This document shows positions 1-64,000 of a stretch of 64,000 nucleotides of DNA, piece by piece. Numbering within the stretch: position 1 is the first letter of the stretch; every line of letters begins with the position of its first letter. The translations under genes were made by a program, and so were the position numbers. The stretch is from Janibacter terrae NBRC 107853. Its GTDB lineage: Bacteria > Actinomycetota > Actinomycetes > Actinomycetales > Dermatophilaceae. The notes under the pieces were generated by a model. That model searched no databases. It was given only the letters and a program-made list of their open reading frames with translations, and was not told where the DNA came from. The stretch spans positions 558,001-622,000 of the forward strand of contig NZ_BCUV01000006.1 of NCBI RefSeq assembly GCF_001591405.1, written 5' to 3'.

Positions 1-141
1 CGCCACCGAGCGGTGCGGTGCGTCCTCGGCCGTGTACACGTGGTCCTCGCTCGCCCGGGCCACCCAGATGTTGGGGCCGGCGACCACGAGGACCACGAGC
101 AGCACCACGCCGCCGACCAACCAGCGCCACCTGCGCCTCAT
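1..141 (-). CDS. SanA/YdcF-like membrane protein, N-terminal part only
   Basis: Only the first 47 codons lie in the window. An ATG at 141 opens an arginine-rich start (MRRRWRWLVG), one hydrophobic anchor at about residues 8-21, and then the pattern NxWVxRxSxxxxY, which resembles the N-terminus of SanA-type DUF218 proteins that act in the cell envelope. The diagnostic VLG-type core would follow beyond base 1, so the family call rests on the anchor and the region just after it. It is divergent from the M20 hydrolase gene with 45 bases between the starts. Another single-pass membrane protein is possible. Confidence 0.5.
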   Translation of the reverse strand, partial: MRRRWRWLVGGVVLLVVLVVAGPNIWVARASEDHVYTAEDAPHRSVA

Positions 142-186
142 CCGTGCCCCCTGACAGTCGACCATCCCTCTGCGAGAGTGTGGACC

Positions 187-1449
187 ATGAGCGACGACGA
201 GCGCACCACCGACGTCCTGGCCCGGCTCGACGAGACGCGAGAACGCCGCGAGGAGCTCTACCGCCACCTCCACTCCCACCCCGAGCTGTCGCACGAGGAG
301 AGCGAGACGGCCGCGCTCGTCGCGCAGCGCCTCACGGGGTCCGGGTACGACGTGCGCACCGGGATCGGCGGGACCGGGGTCGTCGGCGTCCTCACCCGGG
401 GCGAGGGCGGGCGCGTGCTGCTGCGCGCCGACATGGACGCACTCCCCGTGCCCGAGGCCACCCGGCTGGACTACGCGAGCACCGTCACCACCCGGGACAC
501 GAAGGGGGAAGAGGTCCCGGTCGCACACGCCTGCGGCCACGACGTGCACGTCACGTGCCTGCTCGAGGCGGCGGACCTGCTCGCCTCCGCCCCCGAGGGC
601 GCGTGGAGCGGCACGGTGATCGCCCTCTTCCAGCCGGGCGAGGAGCGGGGCGACGGAGCCGGACGCATGGTCGAGGACGGTCTGGCCGAGGTCGTCGGGC
701 CGGTGGACGTCGCGATGGCGCAGCACGTGCTCGCCTTCCCCGCCGGCACGGTGGCCACGCGCCCCGGACCGGTGCTCTCGGCCGCCGACAGCATCCGGAT
801 CACCGTCCACGGCCGCGGGTCGCACGGGTCCATGCCGCAGACCGCCGTCGACCCCGTCGTCCTCGCCGCGATGATCGTGCTGCGGCTGCAGACGATCGTC
901 TCCCGCGAGATCGGCCCGACCGACCCGGCGGTCGTCACCGTGGGCTCGATCCACGCCGGCACCAAGAGCAATGTCATCGGCGACCACGCCGTGCTCGAGG
1001 TCAACACGCGGACCTACTCCGACGGGACCCGCCGGCGCGTGCTCGAAGCGATCGAACGCATCGTGCGGGCCGAGTGCCAGGCCTCGGGCAGCCCCCACGA
1101 GCCGCAGCTGGAGCTGTACGACCGCTTCCCGGCGACGGTCAACGACGAGGCGACGACGGCGAGGGTGCGCGCGGCCTTCGACGAGCACTTCGGCGCGGAC
1201 TCGCGCGAGCTGCCGCTGCAGTCCGCGAGCGAGGACTTCAGCGACATCCCGACCGCGCTCGGCGTCCCGTACACCTACTGGGCCATCGGTGGCATCGACC
1301 CGGAGCGGTACGCCGCGGCGGAGGCGGCCGGCCGGGTCGACGAGGACATCCCGGCCAACCACTCCCCCGCCTTCGCGCCCGTGATCCGCCCGACCCTCGA
1401 CGTCGGTGTGCGGGCGCTCGTCGTGGCCGCCCTGGCGCACCTGGGCTGA
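187..1449 (+). CDS. M20 family amidohydrolase (hippurate/N-acyl-amino-acid hydrolase type)
   Basis: This 420-residue protein belongs to the M20D group of zinc-dependent amidohydrolases, which release an amino acid or aromatic acid from an N-acyl amide. Metal-site motifs are visible: RADMDALP at about residue 80, ACGHDVHV at about 115 and PGEE near 150. The dimerisation (lid) domain lies at about 200-310 with the usual GRGSHGSMP segment. Length matches the family. The reading frame stays open far upstream (to base 13), but ATG 187 gives the normal N-terminus and leaves room for the divergent SanA-like gene. The real substrate cannot be read from the sequence. It converges on the cupin gene. 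Confidence 0.88.
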   Translation: MSDDERTTDVLARLDETRERREELYRHLHSHPELSHEESETAALVAQRLTGSGYDVRTGIGGTGVVGVLTRGEGGRVLLRADMDALPVPEATRLDYASTVTTRDTKGEEVPVAHACGHDVHVTCLLEAADLLASAPEGAWSGTVIALFQPGEERGDGAGRMVEDGLAEVVGPVDVAMAQHVLAFPAGTVATRPGPVLSAADSIRITVHGRGSHGSMPQTAVDPVVLAAMIVLRLQTIVSREIGPTDPAVVTVGSIHAGTKSNVIGDHAVLEVNTRTYSDGTRRRVLEAIERIVRAECQASGSPHEPQLELYDRFPATVNDEATTARVRAAFDEHFGADSRELPLQSASEDFSDIPTALGVPYTYWAIGGIDPERYAAAEAAGRVDEDIPANHSPAFAPVIRPTLDVGVRALVVAALAHLG

Positions 1450-2260: not shown

Positions 2261-2803
2261 TCAGCCCTCGTCCGCGTCCTCGTCGCCCGTCGGCGGGTAG
2301 GTCACGGTCGTGCCGTCGACGACGGCGAAGGGGGTCAGCTCGTGCGCCTTGGGCGCTGCGGCCGAGATGATCTCCAGGGCGGTGTGACCGCGCGCCACGA
2401 GGGCGTCGGCGACGAGTCGCCGGTGACAGCGCCACGGCACCGCCTCGGCGCACATGATCGCGCAGGAGTCCTCCTCCGCGAGCGCCAGCAGCGTCTCCAG
2501 CCCCCGCTCGAACTCCTCGGTGAGCATGTGATCCGCGTAGCCCTGGAAGGAGGCATTGCGCCAGGCGCCGTTGGGTGAGTCGGGACGGCGCTTGCGCAGC
2601 CCGCCGAGCTCGGCGACGTAGGAGTACCCGAGCCCGACCCCGGCCAGGGAGTCCGCGAGTGCGTCCCCCCAGTACTGCGGGTTGCGACGCGACTTGGGCA
2701 CCGTGCGGATGTCGACGACCCGGGTCACGCCCCGGGCGGTCAGCATCTCGATGAACTCCTCGACGGGCCGGGTCGAGTGGCCGATCGTGTGGATGGTGCT
2801 CAT
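2261..2803 (-). CDS. DUF488 family protein
   Basis: A 180-residue cytosolic protein of the DUF488 family. It opens with the typical TIGHSTRPVEEFIEML, followed by VVDIRTVPKSRRNPQY, and carries the cysteine/histidine segment MCAEAVPWRCHRRLVAD at about 115-135 that defines the group. No biochemical role is firmly established for the family. The last 15 residues are acidic and variable. It converges on the broken AhpD-like gene with a gap of only three bases and starts seven bases from the stop of the BenE-type gene. Confidence 0.85.
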   Translation of the reverse strand: MSTIHTIGHSTRPVEEFIEMLTARGVTRVVDIRTVPKSRRNPQYWGDALADSLAGVGLGYSYVAELGGLRKRRPDSPNGAWRNASFQGYADHMLTEEFERGLETLLALAEEDSCAIMCAEAVPWRCHRRLVADALVARGHTALEIISAAAPKAHELTPFAVVDGTTVTYPPTGDEDADEG

Positions 2804-4200: not shown

Positions 4201-4875
4201 TCAGAGGCCGGCCGCGGACGCGTTCCACTGGGTGATCCGCCAGCCGGCGCGCCCCTCCTCGAGGCTCGCCCAGTGGCAGTTGCCGAAGCCGCCGAGCACC
4301 CGCCACGCGGTGGTCTGGTCCAGACCGACGAGCTCGGCGACGAGCGAGCGACCGGTGACCCCGTGGGTGGCGATGACGACGCACTCGGCCGCGTCCATGG
4401 ACGCGAGCAGGTCGTCGAGGGCAGCGCGCGTGCGCTCGCCGACGTCGGCGAGCGACTCGCCGTGACCGCCCCGCTTGAAGTCCTCGCCGGAGATGAGCTT
4501 GTCGGCGTCCTGCGGGTACTGCGAGTACACCTGGGCGGCCGTGAGGCCCTGCCAGCCACCGGCGTGGATCTCGCGCCAGCGCTCGTCGGTGCTCACCGGG
4601 AGGCCACCGCAGGCCGCGGCGACCTCCTCGGCCGTGTCCCGGGCCCGCACGAGGTCGGAGGAGACGACCCGCGTGGGACGAAGGGAGGCGATCGCCGCCG
4701 CCGCAGCGCGGGCCTGCTCACGGCCCAGGTCGGTCAGCTCGTGGTCGAGCTGTCCCTGCCAGATGCCCTTGAGGTTGGAGCCGGTCTGGCCGTGCCGCAG
4801 GACGACGAGGCGACGGGGGTCCCCCTTCGTCCCCCCTACGGCCTCCGCGGAGACGCGGCGGGTGGCCTCGGTCAC
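4201..4875 (-). CDS. histidine phosphatase family protein (phosphoglycerate mutase-like)
   Basis: A 224-residue protein of the histidine phosphatase superfamily. The catalytic RHG motif is in LVVLRHGQTGSN (His about 28), a second histidine lies in VVIATHGVTGRSL, and the acidic residue is in WREIHAGGWQG. The GTG start at 4875 overlaps the rsfS stop codon by four bases, so the gene is translationally coupled to nadD-rsfS, a common arrangement in actinobacteria. Family members act on many phosphorylated metabolites or are mutases; the substrate cannot be deduced. Confidence 0.85.
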   Translation of the reverse strand: MTEATRRVSAEAVGGTKGDPRRLVVLRHGQTGSNLKGIWQGQLDHELTDLGREQARAAAAAIASLRPTRVVSSDLVRARDTAEEVAAACGGLPVSTDERWREIHAGGWQGLTAAQVYSQYPQDADKLISGEDFKRGGHGESLADVGERTRAALDDLLASMDAAECVVIATHGVTGRSLVAELVGLDQTTAWRVLGGFGNCHWASLEEGRAGWRITQWNASAAGL

Positions 4876-6530: not shown

Positions 6531-7796
6531 TCAGCCGCGGACCTGGCCGTCACCCTCGACGACCCACTTGGTCGTCGTCAGCTCGGGCAGGGCCATCGGC
6601 CCGCGGGCGTGCAGCTTCTGCGTCGAGATGCCGATCTCCGCACCGAAGCCGAACTCGCCACCGTCGGTGAACCGCGTCGACGCGTTGACGAGCACCGCCG
6701 CGGCGTCCACCTCGGCGGTCCAGCGGCGGGCGGCGGCCCGGTCCTCGGTGACGATCGCCTCGGTGTGGCCGGAGCCGTGGCGCCGCACGTGCTCCATCGC
6801 CGCGTCGACGTCGTCGACGACCGCGACCGACATCTCCAGCGCGAGGTACTCCTGCGCGAAGTCCTCGTCGGTCGCCGCCAGCACGTCGACGCCAGCCGGG
6901 GCGAGCTCGCGCGTCGCCGCGTCACCGTGCAGGACGACGCCGGCGCCGGCGAGGTCGGCGAGCGCCTTGGGGAGGAACTCGCCGGCGATCTCGCGGTGGA
7001 CGAGCAGGGACTCGGCGGCGTTGCACACGCTCGGCCGGTGCGTCTTGGCGTTGAGGGTGATCGCCAGGGCCTTGCCGAGGTCGGCGGCCGCGTCGACGTA
7101 GACGTGGCAGTTGCCGACGCCGGTCTCGATGACGGGCACGGTGGACTCGAGGACGACGGTCTGGATCAGGCCTGCTCCCCCGCGCGGGATGAGCAGGTCG
7201 ACGAGCCCGCGCGCGGTCATCAGCGCCCGGACCGCGTCGTGGTCGCCCTCGAGGAGCTGCACGGCGTCCTGCGGCAGCCCGTGGTCGGCCAGCGCCGAGC
7301 GAAGGGAGTCGGCGAGGGCCCGGTTGGTGCTCGCAGCGGCCGAGCCGCCGCGCAGGATCATCGCGTTGCCGGACTTCAGCCCCAGGCCGGCGGCGTCCAC
7401 CGTGACATTGGGCCGGGCCTCGTAGATCATCCCGATGACACCCATCGGCACCCGCACCTGACGGATCTGCAGGCCGTTGGCCAGGGTCGAGCCGCGCACG
7501 ACCTCGCCGACAGGGTCGGGCAGGGCCGCGAGGTCCCGCAGTGCCTGCGCGACCGCGGCCACGCGGGCCGCGTCGAGGGACAGCCGGTCGAGCAGGCCGG
7601 GGGCCATCCCCCCTTCGCGTCCGCGTCGCAGGTCCTCGGCGTTGGCGGCGACGATGCGCTCCGAGGCCGCGTCCACGGCGTCGGCGAGCGCGAGGAGGGC
7701 GGAGTCCTTCTCGGCGCGGGTCAGCAGGGCGAGGCGGCGCGAGGCGACCCGGGCGCGCTCCGCGAGCTCCCGGACCACGGCGGTGCTGTCGGTCAT
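6531..7796 (-). CDS. proA: glutamate-5-semialdehyde dehydrogenase ProA
   Basis: The 421-residue enzyme reduces gamma-glutamyl phosphate to glutamate semialdehyde with NADPH in proline synthesis. It shows the family segments [17 protein letters not shown] (about 117), the catalytic cysteine in [14 protein letters not shown] (about 255) and [20 protein letters not shown] near the end. Length matches the family. proB, the preceding enzyme of the pathway, is at 8730-9848 on the same strand but is separated from proA by the oppositely oriented pdxY, so the two are not cotranscribed. Confidence 0.96.
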
Positions 7797-11397: not shown

Positions 11398-11434
11398 GCG
11401 AAGGGGGCCGGTCCAGGTGACCCGCCCCCTTCGC
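11398..11434 (-). terminator. inverted pair of the dispersed CGAAGGGG motif between rpmA and obgE
   Basis: GCGAAGGGGGC at 11398-11408 and its exact complement GCCCCCTTCGC at 11424-11434 can form an 11-base stem. It lies 18 bases after the rpmA stop on the minus strand and upstream of obgE, so it could end or attenuate the rplU-rpmA transcript. Confidence 0.7.
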
Positions 11435-12169: not shown

Positions 12170-12208
12170 GTGCCCCCCTCCGACCGACAAACCGGCGAAG
12201 GGGGGCAC
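12170..12208 (-). terminator. hairpin downstream of the RNase E/G gene
   Basis: GTGCCCCCCT at 12170-12179 and AGGGGGGCAC at 12199-12208 are exact complements and enclose a 19-base loop. The hairpin is 23 bases beyond the rne stop and upstream of rplU. The right arm contains a copy of the dispersed CGAAGGGG motif. Confidence 0.65.
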
Positions 12209-35776: not shown

Positions 35777-37762
<1,986 letters not shown>

Positions 37763-46179: not shown

Positions 46180-46290
46180 GGCCGACAGGGCGTGTCTGAC
46201 TCGCGAAGGGGGTTTCGCTCACAGTGGCGGGACCGTCCCGGACTTGCACCGGGTTCCGCGCTGCTCGGTTGCGGGCAGCCTACCGGGGGC
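46180..46290 (-). promoter_or_regulatory. cobalamin riboswitch upstream of cobN
   Basis: On the minus strand the core reads GGAACCCGGTGCAAGTCCGG, then GACGGTCCCGCCACTGTGA, and GCGAGTCAGACA, matching the conserved B12-box regions in order and spacing. It begins about 180 bases before the cobN start. Binding of adenosylcobalamin is expected to reduce cobN-bluB-cobT expression. Confidence 0.93.
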
Positions 46291-47497: not shown

Positions 47498-48165
47498 TGA
47501 ACCCCCTTCGCCAACCGCCTCGCCGGTACGACTACGTCACCGACGGGCAGGAGATCTACCGCCGCTCCTTCGGGATGATCCGCGACGAGGCCGACCTCAG
47601 CGGTCTGCCCGCCGACCTCCACGGTGCTGCCGTGCGGATCATCCACGCCGCTGGTGACGTCGGCATCACGAGCGAGATCGCCGGCCACCCCGAGGTCGCC
47701 GCTTCCGCCCACGCTGCGCTCGTCGCCGGGGCGCCGATCCTCACCGACAGCAACATGCTCGCGCAGGGCGTCACCCGCCGCCGCCTGCCCGCCGACAACG
47801 AGGTGGTCTGCACCCTGCGCGAGCCGCAGGTGCCCGACCTCGCCGCCCAGTGGGGCACGACCCGCGCGGCCGCCGCCGTCTCCCTCTGGGGCGAGCGGCT
47901 CGAGGGTGCCGTCGTCGCGATCGGCAATGCGCCGACCGCCCTCTTCCACCTGCTCGAGCTGCTCCACGACGGCGCCCCGCGTCCCGCCGCGATCATCGGG
48001 ATGCCCGTCGGCTTCGTCGGGTCCGCGGAGTCCAAGGTCGCCCTCGCCGAGCACGACCTGCCCGGCGGCCCGGTCCCCTGGCTCGTCGTCCACGGCCGCC
48101 GCGGCGGGTCCGCGATGGCCGCTGCCGCGCTCAACGCCCTCGCCCACCGGGACGAGCTGGCATGA
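47497..48165 (+). CDS. cobH: precorrin-8X methylmutase CobH
   Basis: A 222-residue enzyme that moves a methyl group from C-11 to C-12 to form hydrogenobyrinic acid. The active-site histidine is in VRIIHAAGDVG (about 46-56), and ILTDSNMLAQGVTRR and GNAPTALFHLLELL match the family. The ATG shares its first base with the last base of the cobG stop, showing tight coupling. Confidence 0.95.
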   Translation: MNPLRQPPRRYDYVTDGQEIYRRSFGMIRDEADLSGLPADLHGAAVRIIHAAGDVGITSEIAGHPEVAASAHAALVAGAPILTDSNMLAQGVTRRRLPADNEVVCTLREPQVPDLAAQWGTTRAAAAVSLWGERLEGAVVAIGNAPTALFHLLELLHDGAPRPAAIIGMPVGFVGSAESKVALAEHDLPGGPVPWLVVHGRRGGSAMAAAALNALAHRDELA

Positions 48166-52418: not shown

Positions 52419-52922
52419 GTGAACCCGCACCCCTTCGAGCACGAGGTCTCCTTCGCCGCGCCGGCCCGCGAGCAGCTGCTCGAGTTCGTCGACGAGCACC
52501 GGGCGGTGCTCGGCCGGTGCCTCGACGACCTGACCGAGGACGAGGCGCGACGCGGCCTCGTGCCCTCGCGCACGACCCTGCTCGGGCTGCTCAAGCACGT
52601 GACCTTCGTCGAGCGGGTGTGGTTCGACGAAGGGGTCCGCGGCCGCTCGCGCACCGAGATCGGGATCCCCGCGACCCCTGACGAGTCCTTCGAGCTGAGC
52701 CCGCACGACACCATCGCCTCGGTCCGGGCCGCGCACCGCCGGGCGTGCGAGGACAGCCGGGCGGCGATCGCCGGGCTCGACCTCGACGACGTGGTGACCG
52801 GCAACCGACGGGGGCCGCTCCCCCTTCGCTGGGTCCTGCTGCACGTGCTGCGCGAGCTCGCCCAGCACGCGGGCCACGCCGACATCCTGCGCGAGCAGAT
52901 CCTCGCCTCCCGCCAGGGCTGA
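52419..52922 (+). CDS. DinB/DUF664-like protein (possible mycothiol-dependent transferase fold)
   Basis: A 167-residue four-helix protein of the DinB/DUF664 superfamily: FVDEHRAVLGRCLDDLTEDEARR, TLLGLLKHVTFVERVWFDEG (histidine about 67) and LHVLRELAQHAGHADILREQ (two histidines about 148-151). The three spaced histidines are the metal-binding triad of the fold. Actinobacterial relatives include mycothiol S-transferases. The GTG start at 52419 gives the expected N-terminus; its stop is followed by a strong hairpin. Confidence 0.8.
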   Translation: MNPHPFEHEVSFAAPAREQLLEFVDEHRAVLGRCLDDLTEDEARRGLVPSRTTLLGLLKHVTFVERVWFDEGVRGRSRTEIGIPATPDESFELSPHDTIASVRAAHRRACEDSRAAIAGLDLDDVVTGNRRGPLPLRWVLLHVLRELAQHAGHADILREQILASRQG

Positions 52923-53876: not shown

Positions 53877-54625
53877 GCCAGCCCCGCCCGCAGCGACAGC
53901 CCGGCGAGCCCGAGGACGAGGCCCCCGGCCGCCAGGACGAAGGGGGTCGACACGGACCGGGCAGGGACGAGCGGCACGGCGGCGACTCCCCCACGACCGG
54001 CCAGTCCGTCCTCGAGCCGGCGGGCCTTGTCCCACGCGGCGACGAGCACCGCGGCGCACAGCTGACCGACCGACCGTCGCGCGGCCCGACCGCTCGCGTA
54101 GCCCAACCGCCCGGCCTGCGCGGCACGGATCGCCGACGCGGCGTCGAGCAGGGCGAAGATCATCCGGTAGGTGACGGCGGCGATGTCGACCGCCACCTCC
54201 GGCACCCGCGCCCGGCGCAGCCCGGCGAGCAGGTCGACCATCGGGGTGGTCGCCGCCAGCAGGACCATCGCGCTCGTGGCCGCGAGCGCCCGGGCGGCGA
54301 CGAGCACGGCCCGGGAGACACTCCCTTCGCCCACGCCGATCGGACCGAGGGACCACAGGTCACCGGGACCGAGGGTCACCGCGATCGTCACTGCTCCGAT
54401 GCCGACGAAGACCGCCGGCCCGAGCATCGCCCGCAGCCAGACGCCGACCGGGACCCGGGCGAGGGCCGCGAGGCCGACGGCACACACCCCGACGAGGCCG
54501 GCGACGACCAGCGAGGTCGTCGTCGCGGCGACGAGGAGCAGGCCCAGGCAGAGGAGGGACTTCTCCAGCGTCGAGCGGGACCGCCACCGGGAGGACCACG
54601 CCGCGTCGTCGAGGGTGGGCCTCAT
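53873..54625 (-). CDS. cbiQ: cobalt ECF transporter transmembrane protein CbiQ
   Basis: A 250-residue membrane protein with about five to six hydrophobic helices. The EcfT coupling helices are recognisable by the Ala-Arg-Gly motif regions: LAGLRRARVPEVAVDIAAVTYR and AIRAAQAGRLGYASGRAARR (about 170-195). CbiQ transmits ATP-driven motion from CbiO to CbiM. It overlaps cbiN and cbiO by four bases each. Confidence 0.92.
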   Translation of the reverse strand: MRPTLDDAAWSSRWRSRSTLEKSLLCLGLLLVAATTTSLVVAGLVGVCAVGLAALARVPVGVWLRAMLGPAVFVGIGAVTIAVTLGPGDLWSLGPIGVGEGSVSRAVLVAARALAATSAMVLLAATTPMVDLLAGLRRARVPEVAVDIAAVTYRMIFALLDAASAIRAAQAGRLGYASGRAARRSVGQLCAAVLVAAWDKARRLEDGLAGRGGVAAVPLVPARSVSTPFVLAAGGLVLGLAGLSLRAGLA

Positions 54626-54954: not shown

Positions 54955-55630
54955 GAGCGGCCTCCGTGGTCTCGACGGTGTCGGCGGGCACGACCTGGAG
55001 GTCCTCCAGTTCGGGCCGCGCCCACGTGATGAGCGCGTTGAGGAGCAGCACGCCGACGAGCCCCTCGACGACGGCGAGCGGCACCTGGGTCACGGCGAAG
55101 ATCCCGAGGAAGCGACCCCACGCCTCGACGAAACCGCCCTCGGGGTAGGCCAGGGCGAGCTGGGTGGCGGTCGTGACGTAGGTGGCGAGGTTGGCCATCG
55201 CGATGCCGACGAAGACCCGCACGACGAAGGGGGCCGCGGCCAGCAGCCGGAAGAGCCCGTAGCCGACCCAGGGCCCGACGACCGCCATGGAGACGACGTT
55301 GGCGCCGAGCGTCGTCAGCCCGCCATGGGCGAGCAGCAGCGCCTGGAAGAGCAGCACGATCGTGCCGAGCAGGGCCATGACCGGCGGACGGAAGATGATC
55401 GCGCCGACGCCGGTGCCCGTCGGGTGCGAGCTCGAGCCGGTGACCGACGGCAGCTTGATCGCCGACATGACGAAGGTGAAGGCGCCGGCGGCGCCGAGCA
55501 GCAGGCGGGCACTCGGGTTGTCCCGCACGATGCGGGCGGCACTGCGGGTGCCGTGGATGACGAAGGGAGCGGCGACAGCAGTCCACGCGGCGGCGTGGAC
55601 CGGTGGCAGGAAGCCCTCGGCGATGTGCAT
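54947..55630 (-). CDS. cbiM: cobalt ECF transporter S component CbiM
   Basis: A 227-residue membrane protein that binds Co2+. The N-terminus MHIAEGFLPP is the diagnostic metal-binding end (His 2), and FTFVMSAIKLPSVTGSSSHPTGTG (residues about 52-75) contains the second conserved histidine. Six to seven helices follow. It opens the cbiMNQO operon, under a cobalamin riboswitch. Confidence 0.96.
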   Translation of the reverse strand: MHIAEGFLPPVHAAAWTAVAAPFVIHGTRSAARIVRDNPSARLLLGAAGAFTFVMSAIKLPSVTGSSSHPTGTGVGAIIFRPPVMALLGTIVLLFQALLLAHGGLTTLGANVVSMAVVGPWVGYGLFRLLAAAPFVVRVFVGIAMANLATYVTTATQLALAYPEGGFVEAWGRFLGIFAVTQVPLAVVEGLVGVLLLNALITWARPELEDLQVVPADTVETTEAARA

Positions 55631-56567: not shown

Positions 56568-57790
56568 GTCGGGTCCTCGGAGTCGGTGCGGATCGCGGCG
56601 AGCTGGGTGACGGTGCGGGCGGGGGTCCACGACAGGAAGCGCCCGAGCGGGACGGCCCGCTCCACGGACAGGCGGGTGAGCTCGCCGCCGGTGCGGGCGT
56701 GCCGGCCGATGAGCGCGGCGTCCCCCTCGAGCGTCACGGCGTGCGCGACGAGGCGTCCGCCGGGGCGAAGGGAGGACCAGGCACGGTCGAGCAGGTCGGG
56801 GTCGAGCCCGCCGCCGACGAAGATCGCGTCGGGCGTCGGCAGCATTGCCAGGTCGGTGCTGCCGGTGTCGCCGACGACGACGTCGACCCGAGCAGCGAGG
56901 CCGAGGGCAGCGGCGTTGTCGCGGATGCGCTGGGCGCGGGTCGCGTCGCGCTCGACGCAGGTGACGGTCGCGCGGTCGGCGGCGAGGCACCACTCGAGGG
57001 CCACGGAGCCGTTGCCGGCGCCGAGGTCCCACAGGTGCGCGCCGGGTGTGGGCCGCAGTCGGGCCAGACCGCTCGCGCGCACGTCGCGCTTGGTCAGCTG
57101 GCCGTCGTGGTCGATGAAGTCCTCGGGGCGCCCCGGGACCGGTCCGGCGGTCGCGGCAGTCGCCGCGGGGTCGTCGGCGCGCACGTCGAGGCAGGCGAGC
57201 ACGAGGTCGGGGGTGGCCTCGGCGAAGCCGTCGGCGCGCTCGGAGCGAGCGCCCTCGTCGGGGCTGCCAAGGTGCCAGCGGGCGGTGAGCATGCTTGCGC
57301 CCCAACCGTGCTCGGTGAGCAGTGCGCCGAGCCGAGCCGGGTCGCCGCCCCCGGAGAGGAGGACGACGAGTCGCGCGCCGGGGGCCAGGTGGGGCAGGAC
57401 CGCGCGCAGGTCGCGCCCGACGGTCGTGACGACGACGGTCTCCTCGGCGGACCACCCCTGACGGGCCCGGGCGAGGGCATCGCTGCCGATGGCGGGGTGG
57501 ACGCGCACGCGGTCGCCGCCGACGAGCTCGACGAGGGTCGTGGCGATGCCGGAACGCAGCGGGTCACCGCTGGCGAGGACGACGGCGTCGGGGTGCGCCT
57601 CGACGAGGGCGGGCAACGCCGGGCGAAGGGGGCTGGGCCAGGGCACGAGCTGCGCCTCGGGTGCGTGGGGGGCGACGAGGTCGAGGTGACGGCCGCCCCC
57701 GACGAGGGTCGCGGCACCGCTGATGAGGGCGCGTCGGGCCTCGTCCAGACCGGACCACCCGTCGTCCCCGATACCCACGACCTCGATCAC
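56564..57790 (-). CDS. cobL: precorrin-6Y C5,15-methyltransferase (decarboxylating) CobL
   Basis: A 408-residue CbiE-CbiT fusion, adding methyl groups at C-5 and C-15 with removal of the C-12 acetate carboxyl. The CbiE part (1-about 200) starts VVGIGDDGWSGLDEARRAL and has VVLASGDPLRSGIA; the CbiT part (about 215-408) has KRDVRASGLARLRP, HLWDLGAGNGSVALEWC and AIFVGGGLDP. It starts at GTG 57790, divergent from the riboswitch of the chelatase gene. Confidence 0.95.
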   Translation of the reverse strand: MIEVVGIGDDGWSGLDEARRALISGAATLVGGGRHLDLVAPHAPEAQLVPWPSPLRPALPALVEAHPDAVVLASGDPLRSGIATTLVELVGGDRVRVHPAIGSDALARARQGWSAEETVVVTTVGRDLRAVLPHLAPGARLVVLLSGGGDPARLGALLTEHGWGASMLTARWHLGSPDEGARSERADGFAEATPDLVLACLDVRADDPAATAATAGPVPGRPEDFIDHDGQLTKRDVRASGLARLRPTPGAHLWDLGAGNGSVALEWCLAADRATVTCVERDATRAQRIRDNAAALGLAARVDVVVGDTGSTDLAMLPTPDAIFVGGGLDPDLLDRAWSSLRPGGRLVAHAVTLEGDAALIGRHARTGGELTRLSVERAVPLGRFLSWTPARTVTQLAAIRTDSEDPT

Positions 57791-57994: not shown

Positions 57995-60085
57995 GTGAGC
58001 CGCACCGGGTCCCGGACCCCCACCTTCCCCTTCACCGCGCTCGTCGGTGCCGACGAGCTGACGTCGGCGCTGCTGCTGAGCGCGATCTCGCCCGAGATCG
58101 GCGGGGTCCTCGTCCGGGGTGAGAAGGGCACCGCCAAGTCGACCGCCGTCCGCGCCCTCGCCTCGGTCCTGCCCGAGCAGCGGGTGGCGAGCGAGTGCCG
58201 CTTCGGCTGCGACCCCGACCGCGACGAGGACTGCCCCGACGGCCCCCACGAGGGCGCGGCCACGACCCGCCCGGCCCGCCTCGTCGAGCTGCCCGTCGGT
58301 GCGACCGAGGACCGCGTCGTCGGCTCCCTCGACCTGCGCCGAGCCCTGGGCGACGGCGAGGCCGCCTACCAGCCCGGTCTGCTCGCCGACGCGCACCGCG
58401 GCATCCTCTACGTCGACGAGGTCAACCTCCTGCACGACCACCTCGTCGACGTGCTGCTCGACGCTGCCGCGATGGGGCGCAACACCGTCGAGCGCGACGG
58501 TGTCTCGATCTCGCACCCGGCGCGGATCACCCTCGTCGGCACGATGAACCCCGAGGAGGGCGAGCTGCGCCCGCAGCTGCTCGACCGCTTCGGCCTGACC
58601 GTCCACGTCGCCGCGAGCCGCGACCCGCACGTGCGCGCCGAGGTCGTGCGTCGCCGGCTCGAGGCCGACCTCGACCCGGCAGGCTTCGCGGCCCGCTTCA
58701 CCGACGCCGAGGCCGAGCTCACCGCGCGCCTGGCCGCCGCCCGCGAGGCGGTGCGCCGGGTCGCGCTCGACGAGCGGACCCTGCGGACCATCGCGCGGGT
58801 GTGCGCCGGATTCGACGTCGACGGCATGCGCGCCGACATCGTCACCGCCCGCACCGCCGCGGCGCACGCCGCGTGGGAGGGGCGCGACCACGTGACCCGC
58901 GAGGACATCCGGGCCGCGGCGCTGCTCTCCCTGCCCCACCGCCGCCGTCGTGCTCCCTTCGACGCGCCGGGTCTCGACGAGGACCTGCTCGACCGGCTGC
59001 TCGACGACGAGCCCGAGGACGACCCGCCGGGCGGCGGCGAGGAAGAGCCCGACGGCGGCGACCAGCCCGACGAGGGCCCGGGCGAGGCGCCCGACGCCGA
59101 CCCCTCGGGCCCGGCCCCGAGCTCGACGTCGTCCGACGACCAGCCCCCGACCGGGCCCCAGTCGTCCGCCGACCCGACCCCCGACTCCCCGGACGAGTCG
59201 GCGGAGGACCCCGAGGCACCCCCTTCGCCCCCTGCGGGTGCCCAGCCGACCCCCACCGGCACCGCCGCGGCCACCGAGCCCTACCGGGCCCGTCGCCTCG
59301 AGCTCACCGGCGTCGGCGCCGGCCCGAGCGGTCGCCGCTCCCCCGCGCTCACCCCCCGCGGGCGGGTCGTCGGCACCCACCCGGCCGGGCACGAGCCCGC
59401 CGGGTCGCCGGTGCACCTGACCGCCACCCTTCGTGCCTCCGCCGCCCGCCGCGCGGCCCGCACCGGGCCCGCCCGGGTGACCGGCGACGACCTGCGCCAC
59501 GCCATGACCCGCGGCCGCGAGGCCAACCTCGTCCTCCTCGCCGTCGACGCCTCCGGCTCGATGGCCGCGCGCAAGCGGATGGGCGAGGTCAAGACCGCCG
59601 TCCTCTCGCTCCTGCTCGACGCCTACCAGCGGCGCGACCGGGTGGGTCTGGTGACCTTCCGCGGGACCGGCGCGGAGCTGGCGCTGCCGCCCACCTCGTC
59701 CGTCGACGCCGCCGCCGCGCGCCTCGCCGAGATGCCGCACGGCGGACGGACCCCGCTCGCCGAGGGCCTGACCGAGATCGCCAGGGTCGTTGCGAGAGAG
59801 CGCATCCGCGACCGCAACCAGCGCGCCCTCGTCGTCCTCGTCACTGATGGCCGGGCCACCGCGGGCCCCGATGCCCTCGCCCGGGCCCAGGCCATCGCCG
59901 ACGCCTGGGGGCACACGGCGGAGACCGTCGTCGTCGACTGCGAGTCGGGCCGCTTCCGCATGGGCCTGGCCGCCGACCTCGCCCACCGCATGGGCGCCGA
60001 GCACATCGCCCTCGAGCAGGTCGCCGCGAGCGGCCTCGTCGAGATCGTCACCGACCGCACCGCCTCCCGAAGGAGCGCCGCCTGA
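57995..60085 (+). CDS. ChlI/ChlD-type chelatase subunit (AAA+ plus vWA), partner of CobN
   Basis: A 696-residue fusion. The AAA+ domain (about 10-330) has Walker A GEKGTAKST (about 42-50), Walker B ILYVDEVNLLHDHLVDVLLDAA and GTMNPEEGELRPQLLDRFGL. An acidic, Pro-rich linker (about 335-450) leads to a vWA domain with the MIDAS motif DASGSMAARKRM (about 517). Such proteins replace CobS and CobT-chelatase as ATPase partners of CobN in actinobacteria. GTG 57995 with AGGAGG eight bases upstream fixes the start. It shares the B12-repressed unit with cobO. Confidence 0.92.
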   Translation: MSRTGSRTPTFPFTALVGADELTSALLLSAISPEIGGVLVRGEKGTAKSTAVRALASVLPEQRVASECRFGCDPDRDEDCPDGPHEGAATTRPARLVELPVGATEDRVVGSLDLRRALGDGEAAYQPGLLADAHRGILYVDEVNLLHDHLVDVLLDAAAMGRNTVERDGVSISHPARITLVGTMNPEEGELRPQLLDRFGLTVHVAASRDPHVRAEVVRRRLEADLDPAGFAARFTDAEAELTARLAAAREAVRRVALDERTLRTIARVCAGFDVDGMRADIVTARTAAAHAAWEGRDHVTREDIRAAALLSLPHRRRRAPFDAPGLDEDLLDRLLDDEPEDDPPGGGEEEPDGGDQPDEGPGEAPDADPSGPAPSSTSSDDQPPTGPQSSADPTPDSPDESAEDPEAPPSPPAGAQPTPTGTAAATEPYRARRLELTGVGAGPSGRRSPALTPRGRVVGTHPAGHEPAGSPVHLTATLRASAARRAARTGPARVTGDDLRHAMTRGREANLVLLAVDASGSMAARKRMGEVKTAVLSLLLDAYQRRDRVGLVTFRGTGAELALPPTSSVDAAAARLAEMPHGGRTPLAEGLTEIARVVARERIRDRNQRALVVLVTDGRATAGPDALARAQAIADAWGHTAETVVVDCESGRFRMGLAADLAHRMGAEHIALEQVAASGLVEIVTDRTASRRSAA

Positions 60086-60699
60086 TGGCCCAGGGACAGA
60101 CCCCCGTCACCCCGAAGGACGGGCTGACCACGCGGCAGCGCCGCAACCGCCCGCTCGTCGTCGTCCACGGCGGCGTCGGCAAGGGCAAGTCGACGGCGGC
60201 CTTCGGCCTCGGCCTGCGCGGGTGGAACCAGGGCTGGTCGATCGGCGTCTTCCAGTTCGTCAAGTCCGCGAAGTGGCGCATCGGCGAGGAGGAGGTCTAC
60301 ACGACCCTCGGCCGGGTCCACGAGGAGACCGGCGAAGGGGGCCCCGTCGAGTGGCACAAGATGGGCTCCGGCTGGTCCTGGTCGCGCAAGGCGGGGACCG
60401 AGGAGGACCACGCGGCCGACGCCCGTGAGGGCTGGGCGGAGATCAAGCGGCGACTCGCCGCCGAGACGCACACCGTTTACATCCTCGACGAGTTCACCTA
60501 TGTCATGAAGTGGGGTTGGGTCGAGCTCGACGACGTCATCGACACGCTGACCAACCGGCCCGGCTACCAGCACGTGATCATCACCGGCCGCGACCCGCAC
60601 CCGCGCCTGCTCGAGATCGCCGACGTCGCGACCGAGATGACCAAGGTCAAGCACCCCTTCGACCAGGGGCAGAAGGGCCAGAAGGGCATCGAGTGGTGA
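60085..60699 (+). CDS. cobO: cob(I)yrinic acid a,c-diamide adenosyltransferase CobO
   Basis: A 204-residue P-loop enzyme that adenosylates the corrinoid using ATP. The phosphate loop is VVHGGVGKGKSTAAFGLGLR (about 27-45), followed by FQFVKSAKWRIGEE, the tryptophan-rich KMGSGWSWSRK and ILDEFTYVMKWGW. The ATG shares a base with the preceding TGA. It matches the CobA/CobO family throughout. Confidence 0.96.
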   Translation: MAQGQTPVTPKDGLTTRQRRNRPLVVVHGGVGKGKSTAAFGLGLRGWNQGWSIGVFQFVKSAKWRIGEEEVYTTLGRVHEETGEGGPVEWHKMGSGWSWSRKAGTEEDHAADAREGWAEIKRRLAAETHTVYILDEFTYVMKWGWVELDDVIDTLTNRPGYQHVIITGRDPHPRLLEIADVATEMTKVKHPFDQGQKGQKGIEW

Positions 60700-63299
60700 C
60701 GACCCTCCCCCGGGTGCTCGTCGCGGCGCCAGCGTCGGGCCACGGCAAGACGACGATCGCCGTGGGGATCATGGCCGCCCTCGCCCGCCGCGGTCTGACC
60801 GTCGCGCCGGCCAAGGTCGGCCCGGACTACATCGACCCCGGCTACCACGCCCTGGCGACCGGCCGCCCGAGCCGCACCCTCGACCCGTGGCTCGTGGGCG
60901 AAGGGAGGGTCGCTCCCCTCCTCGCCCGCGGCGCCACCCACCCGACCCTCGCGGACGTCGCGGTCCTCGAGGGCGTCATGGGCCTCATGGACGGACGGCT
61001 CGGGGGCGACGGCTTCGCCTCCAGCGCGCACGTCGCCACCCTGACGCGCACGCCCGTCGTCCTCGTCGTCGACATCAGCTCGACCTCACGGACCGTCGCC
61101 GCCACCGTGCACGGCCTCGCGACGATCGACCCCGAGCTCGACGTCGTGGGTGTCGTGCTCAACAAGGCCGGCACCCCGCGCCACGGCGAGGAGGCCCGCC
61201 GGGCGGTCGAGGCCGTCGGCGTCCCCGTGTGGGGCGTGCTGCCCCGCGACGCCGCGATGCACGTGCCCTCGCGCCACCTCGGGCTCGTCCCCGCCGCCGA
61301 GCGCGGCGAGGCCGCAGCGACCCTCGACCACATCGCCGCCGTCGCCGAGGAGCACCTCGACCTCGACGCGCTGCTCGCGGCCTCCCGCACGGCCCCCGAC
61401 CTCGATCTCGAGCCGTGGGCCCCTGGCGCCGCCCTTCCTTCGCTCCAGTCCCCGCTCCCCGAGGAGCGTGCTGTGCATTCGTCCCGACGGGAGGTCGTCG
61501 TGGCCGTCGCCGGGGGCCGCGCCTTCACCTTCCGCTACCCCGAGACGGTCGAGCTGCTCGAGGCCGCCGGCGCCCGGGTCGTCGAGCTCGACCCGGCCCG
61601 CGACGCCGCGCTGCCGGAGGACACGAGCGGGCTCTACCTCGGCGGCGGCTTCCCCGAGGTGCACGCGCGCACCCTGGCGACCAACCGCCCTCTCGTGCAC
61701 CAGATCCGCACCGCCATCGCGGCCGGCATGCCGACGATCGCCGAGTGCGCCGGCATGCTCTACCTCGCCGAGACCCTCGACGACCACCCGATGGTCGGCG
61801 CCCTGCCCGCCCGGGCCGCGATGGGCCGCCGCCTCACCCTCGGCTACCGCGAGGCGACCTCGCTCGTCGACTCCGTCCTCGGCCCGGCCGGGACCCGGGT
61901 CGCCGGCCACGAGTTCCACCGCACGGTGACCGATCCCCCCTTCGGCACGAGTGCGGCATGGGACCTCGGTGGCCGCACCGAGGGCTTCGCCCTCGACCCC
62001 GCCGGCACCGGTCGCGCGACCCTCGTCGCCTCCTACCTGCACACGCACTGGGCCGGCTCGCCCTCCGTGGCGGGGTCCTTCGTCGAGGCCGCTCGTGGCT
62101 GGGGCCAAGCCCGCACGGTCACCTCGGACGAAGTCCCTCGGGGCGTCCGTGGATCGGGTGGGGTGGCGCTGGGGGCTTCGCCCGTGCACCCCACGTCCGC
62201 GGAGCACTCACCTGACGCCCCGCAACCGGCTCAGCCCTTGAGTCGCGCCACCCCAGCCCGATCCACGTCCTTGGCAGACCCCCTTCGTCATCACGGGGAC
62301 GCCGAGGTGTCGAGCGAGCTGGTGGACCTCGCCGTCAACGTGCGGCTCACCCAGCCGCCGGGGTGGCTCGCGCAGGCCCTCGCCGAGGAGCTGTCGACCG
62401 TCGCGGCCTACCCCGACCCCACCCGTGCTCGGGATGCGATCGCCGCGCGGCACGGTGTGGCCCGCGACCAGGTGCTGCCGACGAGTGGTGGGGCCGAGGC
62501 CTTCACGCTGCTCGCGCGGGCGCTGACACCGCGCGACGCGGTCGTCGTGCACCCGCAGTTCACCGAGCCCGAGGCCGCGCTGCGCGCCGCGGGGCACGAG
62601 GTGCGGCGCGTCCTGCTGCGGCCGGAGGACGACTTTGCGCTCACGGCCCAGGCGCTCGGGCAGATCGGCGACGCCGACCTCGTCGTCGTCGGCAACCCGA
62701 CCAACCCGACGGGCGTGCTCCACCCGGCAGCTACGCTGCGCTCGCTCGTGCGGCCCGGCCGGGTGGTCCTCGTCGACGAGGCCTTCATCGACTCCGTCCC
62801 CGGCGAGCGCGAGACGCTCCTGGGGGGCGACCTCACCGGCCTGCTCGTCGTGCGCTCGCTGACCAAGACCTGGGCCGTCGCCGGCATCCGCGCCGGCTAC
62901 GTCGTCGGAGACGCCGAGCTCGTCGCGGCCCTGGCCGAGCACCAACCGCACTGGTCCGTGGGCTCCCTCGCGCTGCGCGTCATGATCGAGACCGCCACCC
63001 AAGCCGCACTCGTCGAGGCCGACCGGGCCGCCGAGGAGATCGCCGGGTGGCGGGCCCACCTCACGCGGGGGCTGCACACGCTGGGCATCCCGACCGCCGG
63101 CGGGGACGCCCCCTTCGTCCTGGCCCGGGTCGGCACGGGTGTCCGCGAGGCGCTGCGCGATGCCGGGTGGGCCGTGCGGCGAGGCGATACGTTCCCGGGG
63201 CTCGACACCGCATGGGTGCGGATCGCCGTCCGTGACCCCCACACCATCGACGGGTTGCTGAGAGAGCTGACCCACCTGCACCACCGGAGGACCGCATGA
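60696..63299 (+). CDS. cobB: CobB-CobC fusion: cobyrinic acid a,c-diamide synthase + threonine-phosphate decarboxylase-like aminotransferase
   Basis: An 867-residue protein. CobB (1-about 478) has the P-loop PASGHGKTTIAVGIMAALA, KVGPDYIDPGYHA, the glutaminase nucleophile in AECAGMLYLAETL (about 350) and SYLHTHWAG. It amidates side chains a and c of hydrogenobyrinic acid. A 55-residue Pro/Ser-rich linker (about 479-536) follows. The second part (537-867) is a fold-I PLP enzyme like Rv2231c CobC, with PTSGGAEAFTLLA, NPTNPTGV, VDEAFIDS and the PLP lysine in RSLTKTWAVAGIRAGY. No stop or frame change separates the parts. GTG 60696 overlaps cobO. Confidence 0.92.
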   Translation: MTTLPRVLVAAPASGHGKTTIAVGIMAALARRGLTVAPAKVGPDYIDPGYHALATGRPSRTLDPWLVGEGRVAPLLARGATHPTLADVAVLEGVMGLMDGRLGGDGFASSAHVATLTRTPVVLVVDISSTSRTVAATVHGLATIDPELDVVGVVLNKAGTPRHGEEARRAVEAVGVPVWGVLPRDAAMHVPSRHLGLVPAAERGEAAATLDHIAAVAEEHLDLDALLAASRTAPDLDLEPWAPGAALPSLQSPLPEERAVHSSRREVVVAVAGGRAFTFRYPETVELLEAAGARVVELDPARDAALPEDTSGLYLGGGFPEVHARTLATNRPLVHQIRTAIAAGMPTIAECAGMLYLAETLDDHPMVGALPARAAMGRRLTLGYREATSLVDSVLGPAGTRVAGHEFHRTVTDPPFGTSAAWDLGGRTEGFALDPAGTGRATLVASYLHTHWAGSPSVAGSFVEAARGWGQARTVTSDEVPRGVRGSGGVALGASPVHPTSAEHSPDAPQPAQPLSRATPARSTSLADPLRHHGDAEVSSELVDLAVNVRLTQPPGWLAQALAEELSTVAAYPDPTRARDAIAARHGVARDQVLPTSGGAEAFTLLARALTPRDAVVVHPQFTEPEAALRAAGHEVRRVLLRPEDDFALTAQALGQIGDADLVVVGNPTNPTGVLHPAATLRSLVRPGRVVLVDEAFIDSVPGERETLLGGDLTGLLVVRSLTKTWAVAGIRAGYVVGDAELVAALAEHQPHWSVGSLALRVMIETATQAALVEADRAAEEIAGWRAHLTRGLHTLGIPTAGGDAPFVLARVGTGVREALRDAGWAVRRGDTFPGLDTAWVRIAVRDPHTIDGLLRELTHLHHRRTA

Positions 63300-64000
63300 C
63301 CGACGCCACCACCGCCACCGGGCGGGTCATCCTCGTCGGCGGAGGGCCGGGCGACCCCGGCCTGCTCACCGTCGCCGGACACGACGCGCTTGCGGCGGCC
63401 GACATCGTCGTCACCGACCGCCTCGGTCCGGTCGCGGCGCTCGACGAGATCGCCCCGCAGGCCGAGATCGTCCACGTCGGCAAGATCCCCCGCGGCAAGT
63501 TCACCCCCCAGGAGCGGATCAACGAACTGCTCGTCGAGCACGCCCGCGCCGGCCGGACCGTGGTGCGGCTCAAGGGCGGTGACGGTTACCTCTTCGGCCG
63601 CGGCGGCGAGGAGTGGAACCACTGCGTCGCCGCCGGCGTGCCCGTCGAGGCCGTGCCGGGCGTCTCCTCCGCCTTCTCCGTGCCGGCCCTCGCCGGCATC
63701 CCGGTGACCCACCGCGGCCTGTCCCAGGGCGTCGCGGTCGTCTCCGGGCACGTCGCCCCCGACGACCCGCGCAGCGAGGTCGACTGGGCGGCGCTGGCCA
63801 CCTCGCGTCTGACGATCGTCATCCTCATGGGGGTCGCCACCCTCGGGGCGATCGCCGAGGCGCTCGTCGCGGCCGGCCTGTCCCCCGACACCCCCGCCGC
63901 GTGCATCGCCGACGGGGCCACCCCGCAGCAGCGCTCGGTGCGGGCGCCCCTGTCGCAGATCGCCTCCGCGGCCGACGAAGGGGGCTTCGCTCCCCCGGCC
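63296..64000 (+). CDS. cobA: uroporphyrinogen-III C-methyltransferase CobA, 3' end cut by the window
   Basis: The first 235 codons are present. The enzyme methylates uroporphyrinogen III at C-2 and C-7 to precorrin-2, the entry to cobalamin and siroheme. It shows VILVGGGPGDPGLLTVAGHDAL, RLKGGDGYLFGRGGEEW (about 98) and VPGVSSAFSVPALAGIPVTHRG, and is nearly complete to the end of the catalytic domain. ATG 63296 has GGAGG five bases upstream and overlaps the CobB-CobC stop. Whether a siroheme or HemD domain follows cannot be seen. Confidence 0.93.
   Translation, partial: MTDATTATGRVILVGGGPGDPGLLTVAGHDALAAADIVVTDRLGPVAALDEIAPQAEIVHVGKIPRGKFTPQERINELLVEHARAGRTVVRLKGGDGYLFGRGGEEWNHCVAAGVPVEAVPGVSSAFSVPALAGIPVTHRGLSQGVAVVSGHVAPDDPRSEVDWAALATSRLTIVILMGVATLGAIAEALVAAGLSPDTPAACIADGATPQQRSVRAPLSQIASAADEGGFAPPA

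What the first reader, a model, noticed from the sequence alone, without database searches (positions are those of the whole stretch)
1..64000. A dispersed 10-base motif, RCGAAGGGRG, recurs about 65 times on both strands
Reading the window, I counted about 32 copies of CGAAGGG on the plus strand and about 33 on the minus strand. With roughly 72% GC, a simple independent-base estimate is about 15 in total, so it is enriched about fourfold. The flanks are also constrained: A or G before, and RG, mostly GG or AG, after. Copies lie between genes (11399, 18282, 34666) and inside genes in all frames, often in variable loops such as the acidic insert of CobQ (39470), the methyltransferase linker (51349) and CobO (60332). 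Equal strand use argues against a chromosome-polarity signal like KOPS; it resembles DNA uptake sequences or a recombination/architectural site.
Basis: partly seen in the sequence, partly recalled or inferred. Interest (0 to 1): 0.75.

Follow-up and report, generated by a model that had tools for sequence, protein, structure and literature searches.

The report
DNA-uptake-like motif in Janibacter
A short DNA word is scattered some 1,800 times through this bacterium's chromosome in the pattern expected of a "self" tag by which competent bacteria recognise DNA of their own kind, something reported so far from only two unrelated bacterial families.

Summary
RCGAAGGGRG occurs 1,837 times in the 3.58 Mb genome (923 forward, 914 reverse) against 15 for the pattern read backwards. 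It survives codon-preserving shuffles (165 vs 22.9±3.9), shows no strand polarity in a complete relative, and loses its enrichment with any single change in CGAAGGG. It marks Janibacter and Marihabitans: 12 of 12 sampled genomes, none of 137 others of the family, none of 273 from other families of the order. Most other genera of the family have a different word, CGSCATACC (77 of 149 genomes high); none of the 149 has both. The word is conserved between species while its flanks are less conserved than average, forms inverted hairpin pairs, and is scarce in two elements inserted in comEC. This is the signature of DNA uptake sequences with dialects. I conclude that it is most likely a DUS-type self-recognition system in Actinobacteria, probably read by the ComEA/ComEC–Tad pilus apparatus. 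Uptake and receptor are untested. A 2025 paper names Neisseriaceae and Pasteurellaceae as the only families known to do this (PMC12616744, passage).

The parts
499..508 (+). RCGAAGGGRG copy
2325..2334 (+). RCGAAGGGRG copy
4678..4687 (+). RCGAAGGGRG copy
4821..4830 (-). RCGAAGGGRG copy
7299..7308 (+). RCGAAGGGRG copy
7609..7618 (-). RCGAAGGGRG copy
11398..11434 (.). two copies as a convergent inverted pair outside called genes (11398-11407 +, 11425-11434 -); predicted hairpin -32.5 kcal/mol, terminator-like
12195..12204 (+). RCGAAGGGRG copy, outside called genes
14761..14770 (-). RCGAAGGGRG copy
16591..16600 (+). RCGAAGGGRG copy
18281..18290 (+). RCGAAGGGRG copy
18857..18866 (-). RCGAAGGGRG copy, outside called genes
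24047..24056 (+). RCGAAGGGRG copy
27775..27818 (.). two copies as a convergent inverted pair outside called genes (27775-27784 +, 27809-27818 -); predicted hairpin -48.6 kcal/mol, terminator-like
30124..30133 (-). RCGAAGGGRG copy
34298..34307 (-). RCGAAGGGRG copy
34665..34674 (+). RCGAAGGGRG copy, outside called genes
36678..36687 (+). RCGAAGGGRG copy
37570..37579 (-). RCGAAGGGRG copy
39469..39478 (+). RCGAAGGGRG copy
39784..39793 (-). RCGAAGGGRG copy
41021..41047 (.). two copies as a convergent inverted pair (41021-41030 +, 41038-41047 -), inside a called gene; predicted hairpin -24.3 kcal/mol
43636..43645 (+). RCGAAGGGRG copy
46203..46212 (+). RCGAAGGGRG copy, outside called genes
46398..46407 (-). 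RCGAAGGGRG copy, outside called genes
47355..47364 (-). RCGAAGGGRG copy
47502..47511 (-). RCGAAGGGRG copy
51348..51357 (+). RCGAAGGGRG copy
51627..51636 (-). RCGAAGGGRG copy
52820..52829 (-). RCGAAGGGRG copy
53937..53946 (+). RCGAAGGGRG copy
54321..54330 (-). RCGAAGGGRG copy
55224..55233 (+). RCGAAGGGRG copy
55560..55569 (+). RCGAAGGGRG copy
56765..56774 (+). RCGAAGGGRG copy
57623..57632 (+). RCGAAGGGRG copy
59219..59228 (-). RCGAAGGGRG copy
60332..60341 (+). RCGAAGGGRG copy
60898..60907 (+). RCGAAGGGRG copy
62279..62288 (-). RCGAAGGGRG copy
63109..63118 (-). RCGAAGGGRG copy
63975..63984 (+). RCGAAGGGRG copy

Best explanation
RCGAAGGGRG is the DNA uptake sequence (self-recognition tag) of Janibacter and Marihabitans, and CGSCATACC is the corresponding tag of most other genera sampled in the same family. 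During natural transformation a surface receptor of the competence apparatus binds DNA that carries the clade's own word and passes it to ComEA and ComEC. Fragments with the word are taken up and recombined more often, so the word accumulates wherever the sequence tolerates it and is kept there; freshly arrived phage DNA is poor in it. Paired inverted copies are re-used as hairpins, probably transcription terminators, between genes. Shown here: enrichment, strand symmetry, sharpness, clade restriction, two exclusive words, conservation of the word with permissive flanks, inverted pairs, scarcity in two elements inserted in comEC, and presence of comEA, comEC and a Tad/Flp pilus locus. Inferred: that the word is read at uptake, that transformation happens in these bacteria, and which protein is the receptor (the Tad minor pilin TadE is only a lead).
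For: Whole-genome counts 923/914 vs 11/4 reversed. Codon shuffle 165 vs 22.9±3.9. CGAAGGGGG 492 vs 24.6 expected in 864 kb of two species, while single changes in the first seven bases give 0 to 2.4 times expectation. No polarity in a complete relative, 140 vs 133. 12 of 12 genomes of genera g1 and g38, at most 71 copies (both strands) in any of 137 other family genomes. Named genomes: 8 of 8 of the Janibacter/Marihabitans group high, 3 of 3 others (a MAG, Piscicoccus, Ornithinimicrobium CNJ-824) low; by their identical counts five of the eight and two of the three are genomes already counted. Second word CGSCATACC: 77 of 149 genomes in 29 of 53 genera high, 13 intermediate, 59 low, strands 34,608 vs 34,673 in the high ones, all 12 RCGAAGGGRG genomes low; of 184 genomes of other families the highest has 110 copies against 46 for its control. 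Retention at orthologous places vs composition-matched permutations: 27/34 vs 173/360, 22/34 vs 119/382, 24/31 vs 125/378, 8/26 vs 57/294, 14/31 vs 74/301. Flanks less identical than random in 5 of 5 species, P 0.06 in one and 0.006 or less in four, as reported for Neisseria and H. influenzae (PMC2397512, passages). Pairs 9-50 bases apart: convergent 36 (28 outside genes) and divergent 9, expected 4.9 each; same strand 2, expected 9.7. One prophage copy in this genome 5 vs 22.9-27.0 expected; element in G080 2 vs 14.2. ComEC in 145 of 149, TadE in 141 of 149, comEA and Tad genes named by profile in G144 and G037.
Against: No uptake or transformation experiment on these bacteria is in what I read; none of the papers listed mentions Janibacter. 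ComEC and TadE are just as present in genomes with neither word, so competence genes do not track the word. In this very genome comEC is split by a prophage, so this strain may not be transformable at present. No receptor was identified; ComEA's DNA-binding domain shows no clear dialect-linked change. The nearest sampled relatives of the carriers have neither word. The bias toward gene ends known from Pasteurellaceae is absent. Known DUS/USS systems are in Gram-negative bacteria.
Confidence: 0.72

Rival explanations
1. The word is a Chi site: it regulates a RecBCD-type helicase-nuclease so that it stops degrading self DNA and starts recombination.
For: G-rich, asymmetric, clade-specific and abundant like Chi; RecC (PF04257) is present in 12 of 12 RCGAAGGGRG genomes.
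Against: No bias to the locally G-rich strand in 20 stretches of a complete genome. The exclusive counterpart CGSCATACC is abundant in genomes where RecC was not found: 8 of 18 such genomes, 7 of 17 if one that is 88% complete is set aside; and RecC is present in 7 of 13 genomes with neither word. AddAB and AdnAB were not searched. For RCGAAGGGRG taken alone this rival is not excluded.
Confidence: 0.12
2. The word is a binding site of an abundant nucleoid or chromosome-organising protein.
For: About one copy per 1.95 kb over the whole genome, sharp sequence demand, conserved places.
Against: Spacing is close to random apart from an excess of near pairs (which counts one stretch twice); two quite different words exclude each other within one family and both are missing in single species of genera that otherwise have one (G125, G069); scarcity in the comEC elements needs an extra reason.
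Confidence: 0.08
3. The word marks DNA for a modification-based defence system or is a by-product of codon use, composition or terminators.
For: Hairpin pairs between genes resemble terminators. Modification was not tested.
Against: Codon shuffles and a Markov model leave a 7- to 20-fold excess; most copies (165 of 225 in 464 kb) are inside genes; restriction targets are usually depleted (recalled).
Confidence: 0.05
4. The word is spread by a copying element or a break-and-repair drive unrelated to transformation.
For: Any self-favouring conversion would also spread a short word.
Against: No longer repeat surrounds the copies: positions beyond about two bases on either side carry little information; no such element is known to me.
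Confidence: 0.03

Closest known systems
DNA uptake sequence (DUS) of Neisseriaceae, with dialects and the minor pilin receptor ComP (PMC3630211 abstract and section 'DUS dialects'; PMC2397512 and PMC6370729 passages)
   Same: About 10 bases; about 1,900 copies in N. meningitidis and 1,837 here; several dialects in one family; inverted pairs in terminators; permissive flanks; some family members with none.
   Different: Actinobacteria, Gram-positive; unrelated word without the CTG core; pilus of Tad/Flp type; two words that differ almost wholly, sharing at most a 5' RCG; uptake not shown.
Uptake signal sequence (USS) of Pasteurellaceae (PMC12616744 passages; PMC2346458 abstract)
   Same: Short core in high numbers, in genes too; two dialect groups.
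   Different: Different word and phylum; bias of copies to gene ends, reported for Pasteurellaceae, is not seen here.
Flp/Tad-pilus-dependent natural transformation of Micrococcus luteus (PMC6370729 and PMC8467076, passages)
   Same: An actinobacterium with comEA, comEC and Tad/Flp genes.
   Different: The passages I saw mention no uptake sequence in M. luteus; I did not examine its genome.
Chi sites of RecBCD/AddAB (recalled)
   Same: Short G-rich asymmetric word, abundant.
   Different: No strand polarity; counterpart word occurs where RecC was not found.

Membership tests
DNA uptake sequence / uptake signal sequence (functional class) | Short word hugely over-represented, about one per 1-2 kb | tested here: met
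   1,837 copies in 3,576,202 bases vs 15 reversed
DNA uptake sequence / uptake signal sequence (functional class) | Both strands alike, no replication polarity | tested here: met
   923/914; 140/133 by locally G-rich strand in G144; origin not located
DNA uptake sequence / uptake signal sequence (functional class) | Clade-specific dialects | tested here: met
   RCGAAGGGRG vs CGSCATACC, exclusive in 149 genomes; the 6 carriers put on a ComEC tree of 55 are one clade, support 99/97
DNA uptake sequence / uptake signal sequence (functional class) | Inverted pairs as terminator-like hairpins (Neisseria) | tested here: met
   36 convergent pairs vs 9 divergent, 4.9 expected each; termination not tested; few such pairs in 6 CGSCATACC stretches (4 within 60 bases)
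DNA uptake sequence / uptake signal sequence (functional class) | Word kept, flanks permissive | tested here: met
   flank result not significant in one of five species
DNA uptake sequence / uptake signal sequence (functional class) | Scarce in recently acquired DNA | tested here: met
   Two elements only: 5 vs 22.9-27.0 and 2 vs 14.2
DNA uptake sequence / uptake signal sequence (functional class) | Competence machinery present | tested here: met
   ComEC 145/149, TadE 141/149, ComEA by profile; but the window's own comEC is interrupted
DNA uptake sequence / uptake signal sequence (functional class) | Preferred uptake of DNA that carries the word | not testable with these tools
   needs an uptake assay
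DNA uptake sequence / uptake signal sequence (functional class) | Cognate receptor (ComP-like minor pilin) | tested here: inconclusive
   TadE has an extra C-terminal Cys in 12 of 12 carriers and, after removing two parsing artefacts, in 1 of 43 others; carriers look like one clade, so this may be descent alone
Neisseriaceae DUS as a sequence family | Core CTG shared by all dialects | tested here: not met
   Neither word contains CTG or CAG by inspection; core
Chi site | Bias to the leading strand, as in several bacteria (recalled) | tested here: not met
   by local GC skew and map halves
Chi site | RecBCD-type enzyme present wherever the word is | tested here: inconclusive
   12 of 12 for RCGAAGGGRG, but 10 of 18 for the counterpart word; AddAB/AdnAB not searched
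KOPS/AIMS polarity signals | Strand bias along each chromosome arm | tested here: not met

The most novel reading that the evidence does not exclude
A third, independent origin of uptake-sequence self-recognition, and the first in Gram-positive bacteria: one actinobacterial family with two wholly different, mutually exclusive uptake words, the Janibacter one having replaced the commoner one, read by a Tad-type pilus whose TadE minor pilin gained a disulfide-forming cysteine in the clade that switched.
Probability: 0.6. Interest if true: 0.95.

Novelty: new variant of a known kind. Interest (0 to 1): 0.9.

Why it matters
If right, uptake specificity is not a peculiarity of two proteobacterial families but arose again in Actinobacteria, with a different word and probably a different pilus. 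It would give a second natural experiment on how a word and its receptor change together, predict natural transformability across some 30 genera, and offer a practical way to deliver DNA to them. The clean split into two words also makes the old question, whether such words persist by uptake bias or by selection for self-recognition, testable in a new group.

Tried and rejected
Rejected: chance and composition, codon usage, chromosome polarity, RecBCD-Chi for the two-word system as a whole. Chi for RCGAAGGGRG alone is not excluded.

Tried without result: ComEC presence does not separate genomes with and without the words. ComEA HhH comparison of 14 genomes showed no clear dialect signature; one residue (before the F of the linker) is G or S in 5 of 6 carriers and R in 8 of 8 others, which I do not build on. 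TadE presence does not separate them either. Bias of copies toward gene ends, known from Pasteurellaceae, was not found (deciles 14 to 21). Of 18 stretches taken from other families of the order, 15 (15.6-20 kb, one per genome) were long enough to scan and showed no comparable word; some 9-mers with 5-7 copies and very low expectation (L160, L164) were not followed; three (L161, L166, L170) were too short and dropped. Of ten genera of the family without RCGAAGGGRG, sampled at 40 kb each, two led to CGSCATACC; the other eight showed nothing comparable, although one of them (G081) has an intermediate CGSCATACC count genome-wide, so 40 kb can miss a weak word.

Rows dropped or corrected: one search counted one G144 stretch twice (L074 overlaps L121); one search repeats the pair count without it. 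The 89-kb insert proved to be two identical tandem prophage copies, so the P value is overstated and one search gives the single-copy figure. One search counts only sites aligned without gaps (26 to 34 of 45). One search flagged 3 of 43 other TadE proteins; two (G028, G063) I take as parsing artefacts, since their printed last 70 residues hold no Cys; G010 gave no TadE hit. One search used 28 of the 30 loci; one search used all 30. Labels on the tree (high, low, none) were set by hand. My gene calls come from a home-made caller trained on two Janibacter genomes and undercall other genera.

Literature: ten searches; no title listed there reports an uptake sequence in Actinobacteria. The library holds open-licence papers only and lists were capped, so this is not proof that nothing is in print. 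Papers: PMC3630211 abstract and one section; PMC2346458 abstract; PMC12616744, PMC8467076, PMC6370729, PMC2397512 passages; all others search listing only.
Full report
Observation. The window holds CGAAGGG 34 times on the plus and 33 times on the minus strand, 45 of them in the full form RCGAAGGGRG. In the whole genome (G000, 3,576,202 bases, 11 contigs) RCGAAGGGRG occurs 923 times forward and 914 times in reverse; the same pattern read backwards, which has the same composition, occurs 11 and 4 times. That is one copy per 1.95 kb. In 464 kb (window plus 20 stretches) CGAAGGGGG is the most over-represented 9-mer, 220 against 11.4 expected from a third-order Markov model. In called genes there are 165 copies; 100 shuffles of synonymous codons within genes give 22.9, sd 3.9, maximum 32. 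Density is 0.41 per kb in genes and 0.99 outside.

Sharpness. In 864 kb from two species CGAAGGGGG is found 492 times against 24.6 expected. Single changes in its first seven bases bring the ratio to between 0 and 2.4; only A at the eighth or ninth place keeps a clear excess, 6.9 and 8.6. Bases further out carry little information, with a preference for G two places before the C and for A or G just before it. This looks like the demand of one specific reader rather than a compositional trend.

No polarity. In 20 stretches spaced every 160 kb round a complete relative (G144, 3,229,343 bases) the copies divide 140 to 133 between the locally G-rich and C-rich strand, and neither half of the map shows a bias: 66 vs 64 and 65 vs 78, summed from the rows. 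The origin was not located, but signals that follow chromosome arms, such as KOPS and AIMS, should have shown; Chi becomes less likely.

Who has it. In 149 genomes of 53 genera sampled from the same family, all 9 genomes of the window's genus (g1) and all 3 of genus g38 have 1,192 to 2,039 copies, while none of the other 137 has more than 71. In 297 genomes of the order, 273 of them from other families, no further carrier appears. A search with ComEC in named genomes identifies g1 as Janibacter and g38 as the group of J. melonis and Marihabitans asiaticum, since contig lengths agree exactly (G101 = Janibacter sp. Soil728, G037 = J. melonis NBRC107855, G100 = M. asiaticum DSM 18935; lengths). 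Counted in the named genomes: J. limosus 711/723, Soil728 890/936, a Janibacter MAG 464/488, J. hoylei 831/751, J. anophelis 943/973, J. melonis 894/818, M. asiaticum 930/912, Ca. J. merdipullorum 734/771; a MAG outside the group 16/13, Piscicoccus 16/17, Ornithinimicrobium CNJ-824 13/11. By identical counts, five of the eight carriers and two of the three others are genomes already, so only four of these eleven are new. The species of the window's own genome was not told; that it is a Janibacter follows from its genus code.

A second word. I looked for any enriched k-mer in 40 kb of each of ten genera without RCGAAGGGRG. Two, G047 and G035, showed a different one, CGGCATACC or CGCCATACC. Searched in the same 149 genomes, CGSCATACC is high (at least 200 copies and five times its reversed control) in 77 genomes of 29 genera, intermediate in 13, low in 59; strands 34,608 and 34,673; all 12 RCGAAGGGRG genomes are low. 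Of 184 genomes from other families none reaches these marks; the highest is 110 copies against 46 for its control in a genome of 8.3 Mb. Within genera it can be missing: G125 (12 copies) beside G035 (753), G069 (12) beside G096 (1,626). On a ComEC tree of 55 genomes the six RCGAAGGGRG carriers included form one clade (99/97) inside a branch (support 91/91, not a strong one) in which 18 of the 27 other genomes have CGSCATACC; the nearest sisters, G049 and G036, have neither. The simplest account is one replacement of the word in the ancestor of Janibacter and Marihabitans, and repeated losses of CGSCATACC; the tree is unrooted and does not prove direction. Both words often begin with RCG, which may be a shared remnant or chance.

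Behaviour of the copies. Five species were aligned to the window (82 to 88% identity). The word is kept at the orthologous place more often than 300 permutations of its letters: 27/34 vs 173/360 (G144), 22/34 vs 119/382 (G132), 24/31 vs 125/378 (G101), 8/26 vs 57/294 (G037), 14/31 vs 74/301 (G074). Yet the 60 bases on either side are less conserved than random places in all five, significantly in four (P 0.006 or less; 0.06 in G144), and the word lies more often in columns without alignment. Closely spaced convergent pairs are in excess: 36 at 9 to 50 bases, 28 of them outside genes, against 9 divergent, 4.9 expected for each, and 2 on the same strand, 9.7 expected; they fold into hairpins, in the window at 11398-11434, 27775-27818 and 41021-41047. 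Neisserial DUS do the same in terminators. I did not test termination. Such pairs were rare for CGSCATACC in the six stretches looked at.

Foreign DNA. comEC of this genome is split: residues 29-275 and 270-330 of a relative's ComEC match 89 kb apart. The insert is two identical tandem copies of a 44.5-kb prophage with a serine recombinase, terminase, portal, protease and tape measure. Each copy holds 5 words against 22.9 (genome mean) or 27.0 (flanks) expected. In G080, a CGSCATACC genome, comEC is likewise split about 40 kb apart; the element there has an integrase 59% identical to the Janibacter one, though the Janibacter terminase and portal found no match in it, and 2 CGSCATACC against 14.2 expected. 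DNA that looks newly arrived is thus poor in the word of its host, in both dialects.

Machinery. ComEC is found in 145 of 149 family genomes; the four misses are draft genomes of 330 or more contigs. Next to it in G144 lies comEA with SLBB and HhH domains. A Tad/Flp locus is present: TadA, a DUF4244 pilin and a TadE minor pilin of the Rv3655c type in G144, a DUF4244 pilin and an Rv3654c-type pilin in G037; TadE is found in 141 of 149 genomes. This is the kind of apparatus that Micrococcus luteus uses for transformation (PMC6370729, passages). Neither ComEC nor TadE separates genomes with a word from genomes without. One lead: TadE has an additional cysteine near its C-terminus in 12 of 12 RCGAAGGGRG genomes and in 1 of 43 others, there about two residues off. 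As the carriers look like one clade, this may be shared descent only.

Choice between mechanisms. RecC is present in 12 of 12 RCGAAGGGRG genomes but was not found in 8 of 18 CGSCATACC genomes, and is present in 7 of 13 genomes with neither. If the two words are the same kind of thing, as their exclusion, density, symmetry and scarcity in the comEC elements suggest, RecBCD-Chi cannot be the answer. A nucleoid-protein site is not excluded by sequence alone but does not predict replacement of the word, loss in single species, or permissive flanks.

Novelty. [quoted passage not shown] Ten searches of the open-licence library listed no report for Actinobacteria. I rate it a new variant of a known kind: it works like a DUS, but it is not a member of either known sequence family, and uptake has not been shown.

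Noticed in passing
G000 contig C6:462.5k-551.5k (L023-L027), about 6.5 kb left of the window: comEC is interrupted by two identical tandem copies of a 44.5-kb prophage with a serine recombinase at the comEC junction, so this strain may be unable to take up DNA.
   Followed up: yes
G080:C46:68,541-108,976; G049:C1:2,176,730-2,204,467; G095:C158: comEC is broken near the same position of the Competence domain (about residue 27-33) in three further genomes of 149, in two of them with the missing end 28-40 kb away; the G080 element carries an integrase 59% identical to the Janibacter one. comEC seems to be a recurrent insertion site in this family, as comK is for phages of Listeria (recalled).
   Followed up: partly
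G089, G090, G146 comEC: comEC is split over adjoining matches, possibly decayed or misassembled.
   Followed up: no
G125 (genus g36), G069 (genus g26): Both lack CGSCATACC although congeners have hundreds of copies, while ComEC and TadE are still found: possible cases of recent loss.
   Followed up: no
464-kb sample of G000: Palindrome CCCTAGGG is counted 24 times on the two strands together (12 places) against 1.1 expected; GTCGGTGA 191 vs 56. Neither was studied.
   Followed up: no
L160 (G151) and L164 (G155): Several 9-mers with 5 to 7 copies in 20 kb and very low expectation (for example AAGGGCTTC), perhaps repeats within a gene.
   Followed up: no
L142-L143 (G014): CTCCCCCA 16 vs 2.1 and GTGGGGGA 16 vs 2.8 in 40 kb of a 59% GC genome with neither word; could be another signal.
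   Followed up: no
G000:C7:1298175-1311302 (L099, L100): Two extra secretion-ATPase genes that score higher against PF00437 than any other hit of the 11 genomes searched; the five other carriers searched have no comparable hit, while G047 and G001 do.
   Followed up: no
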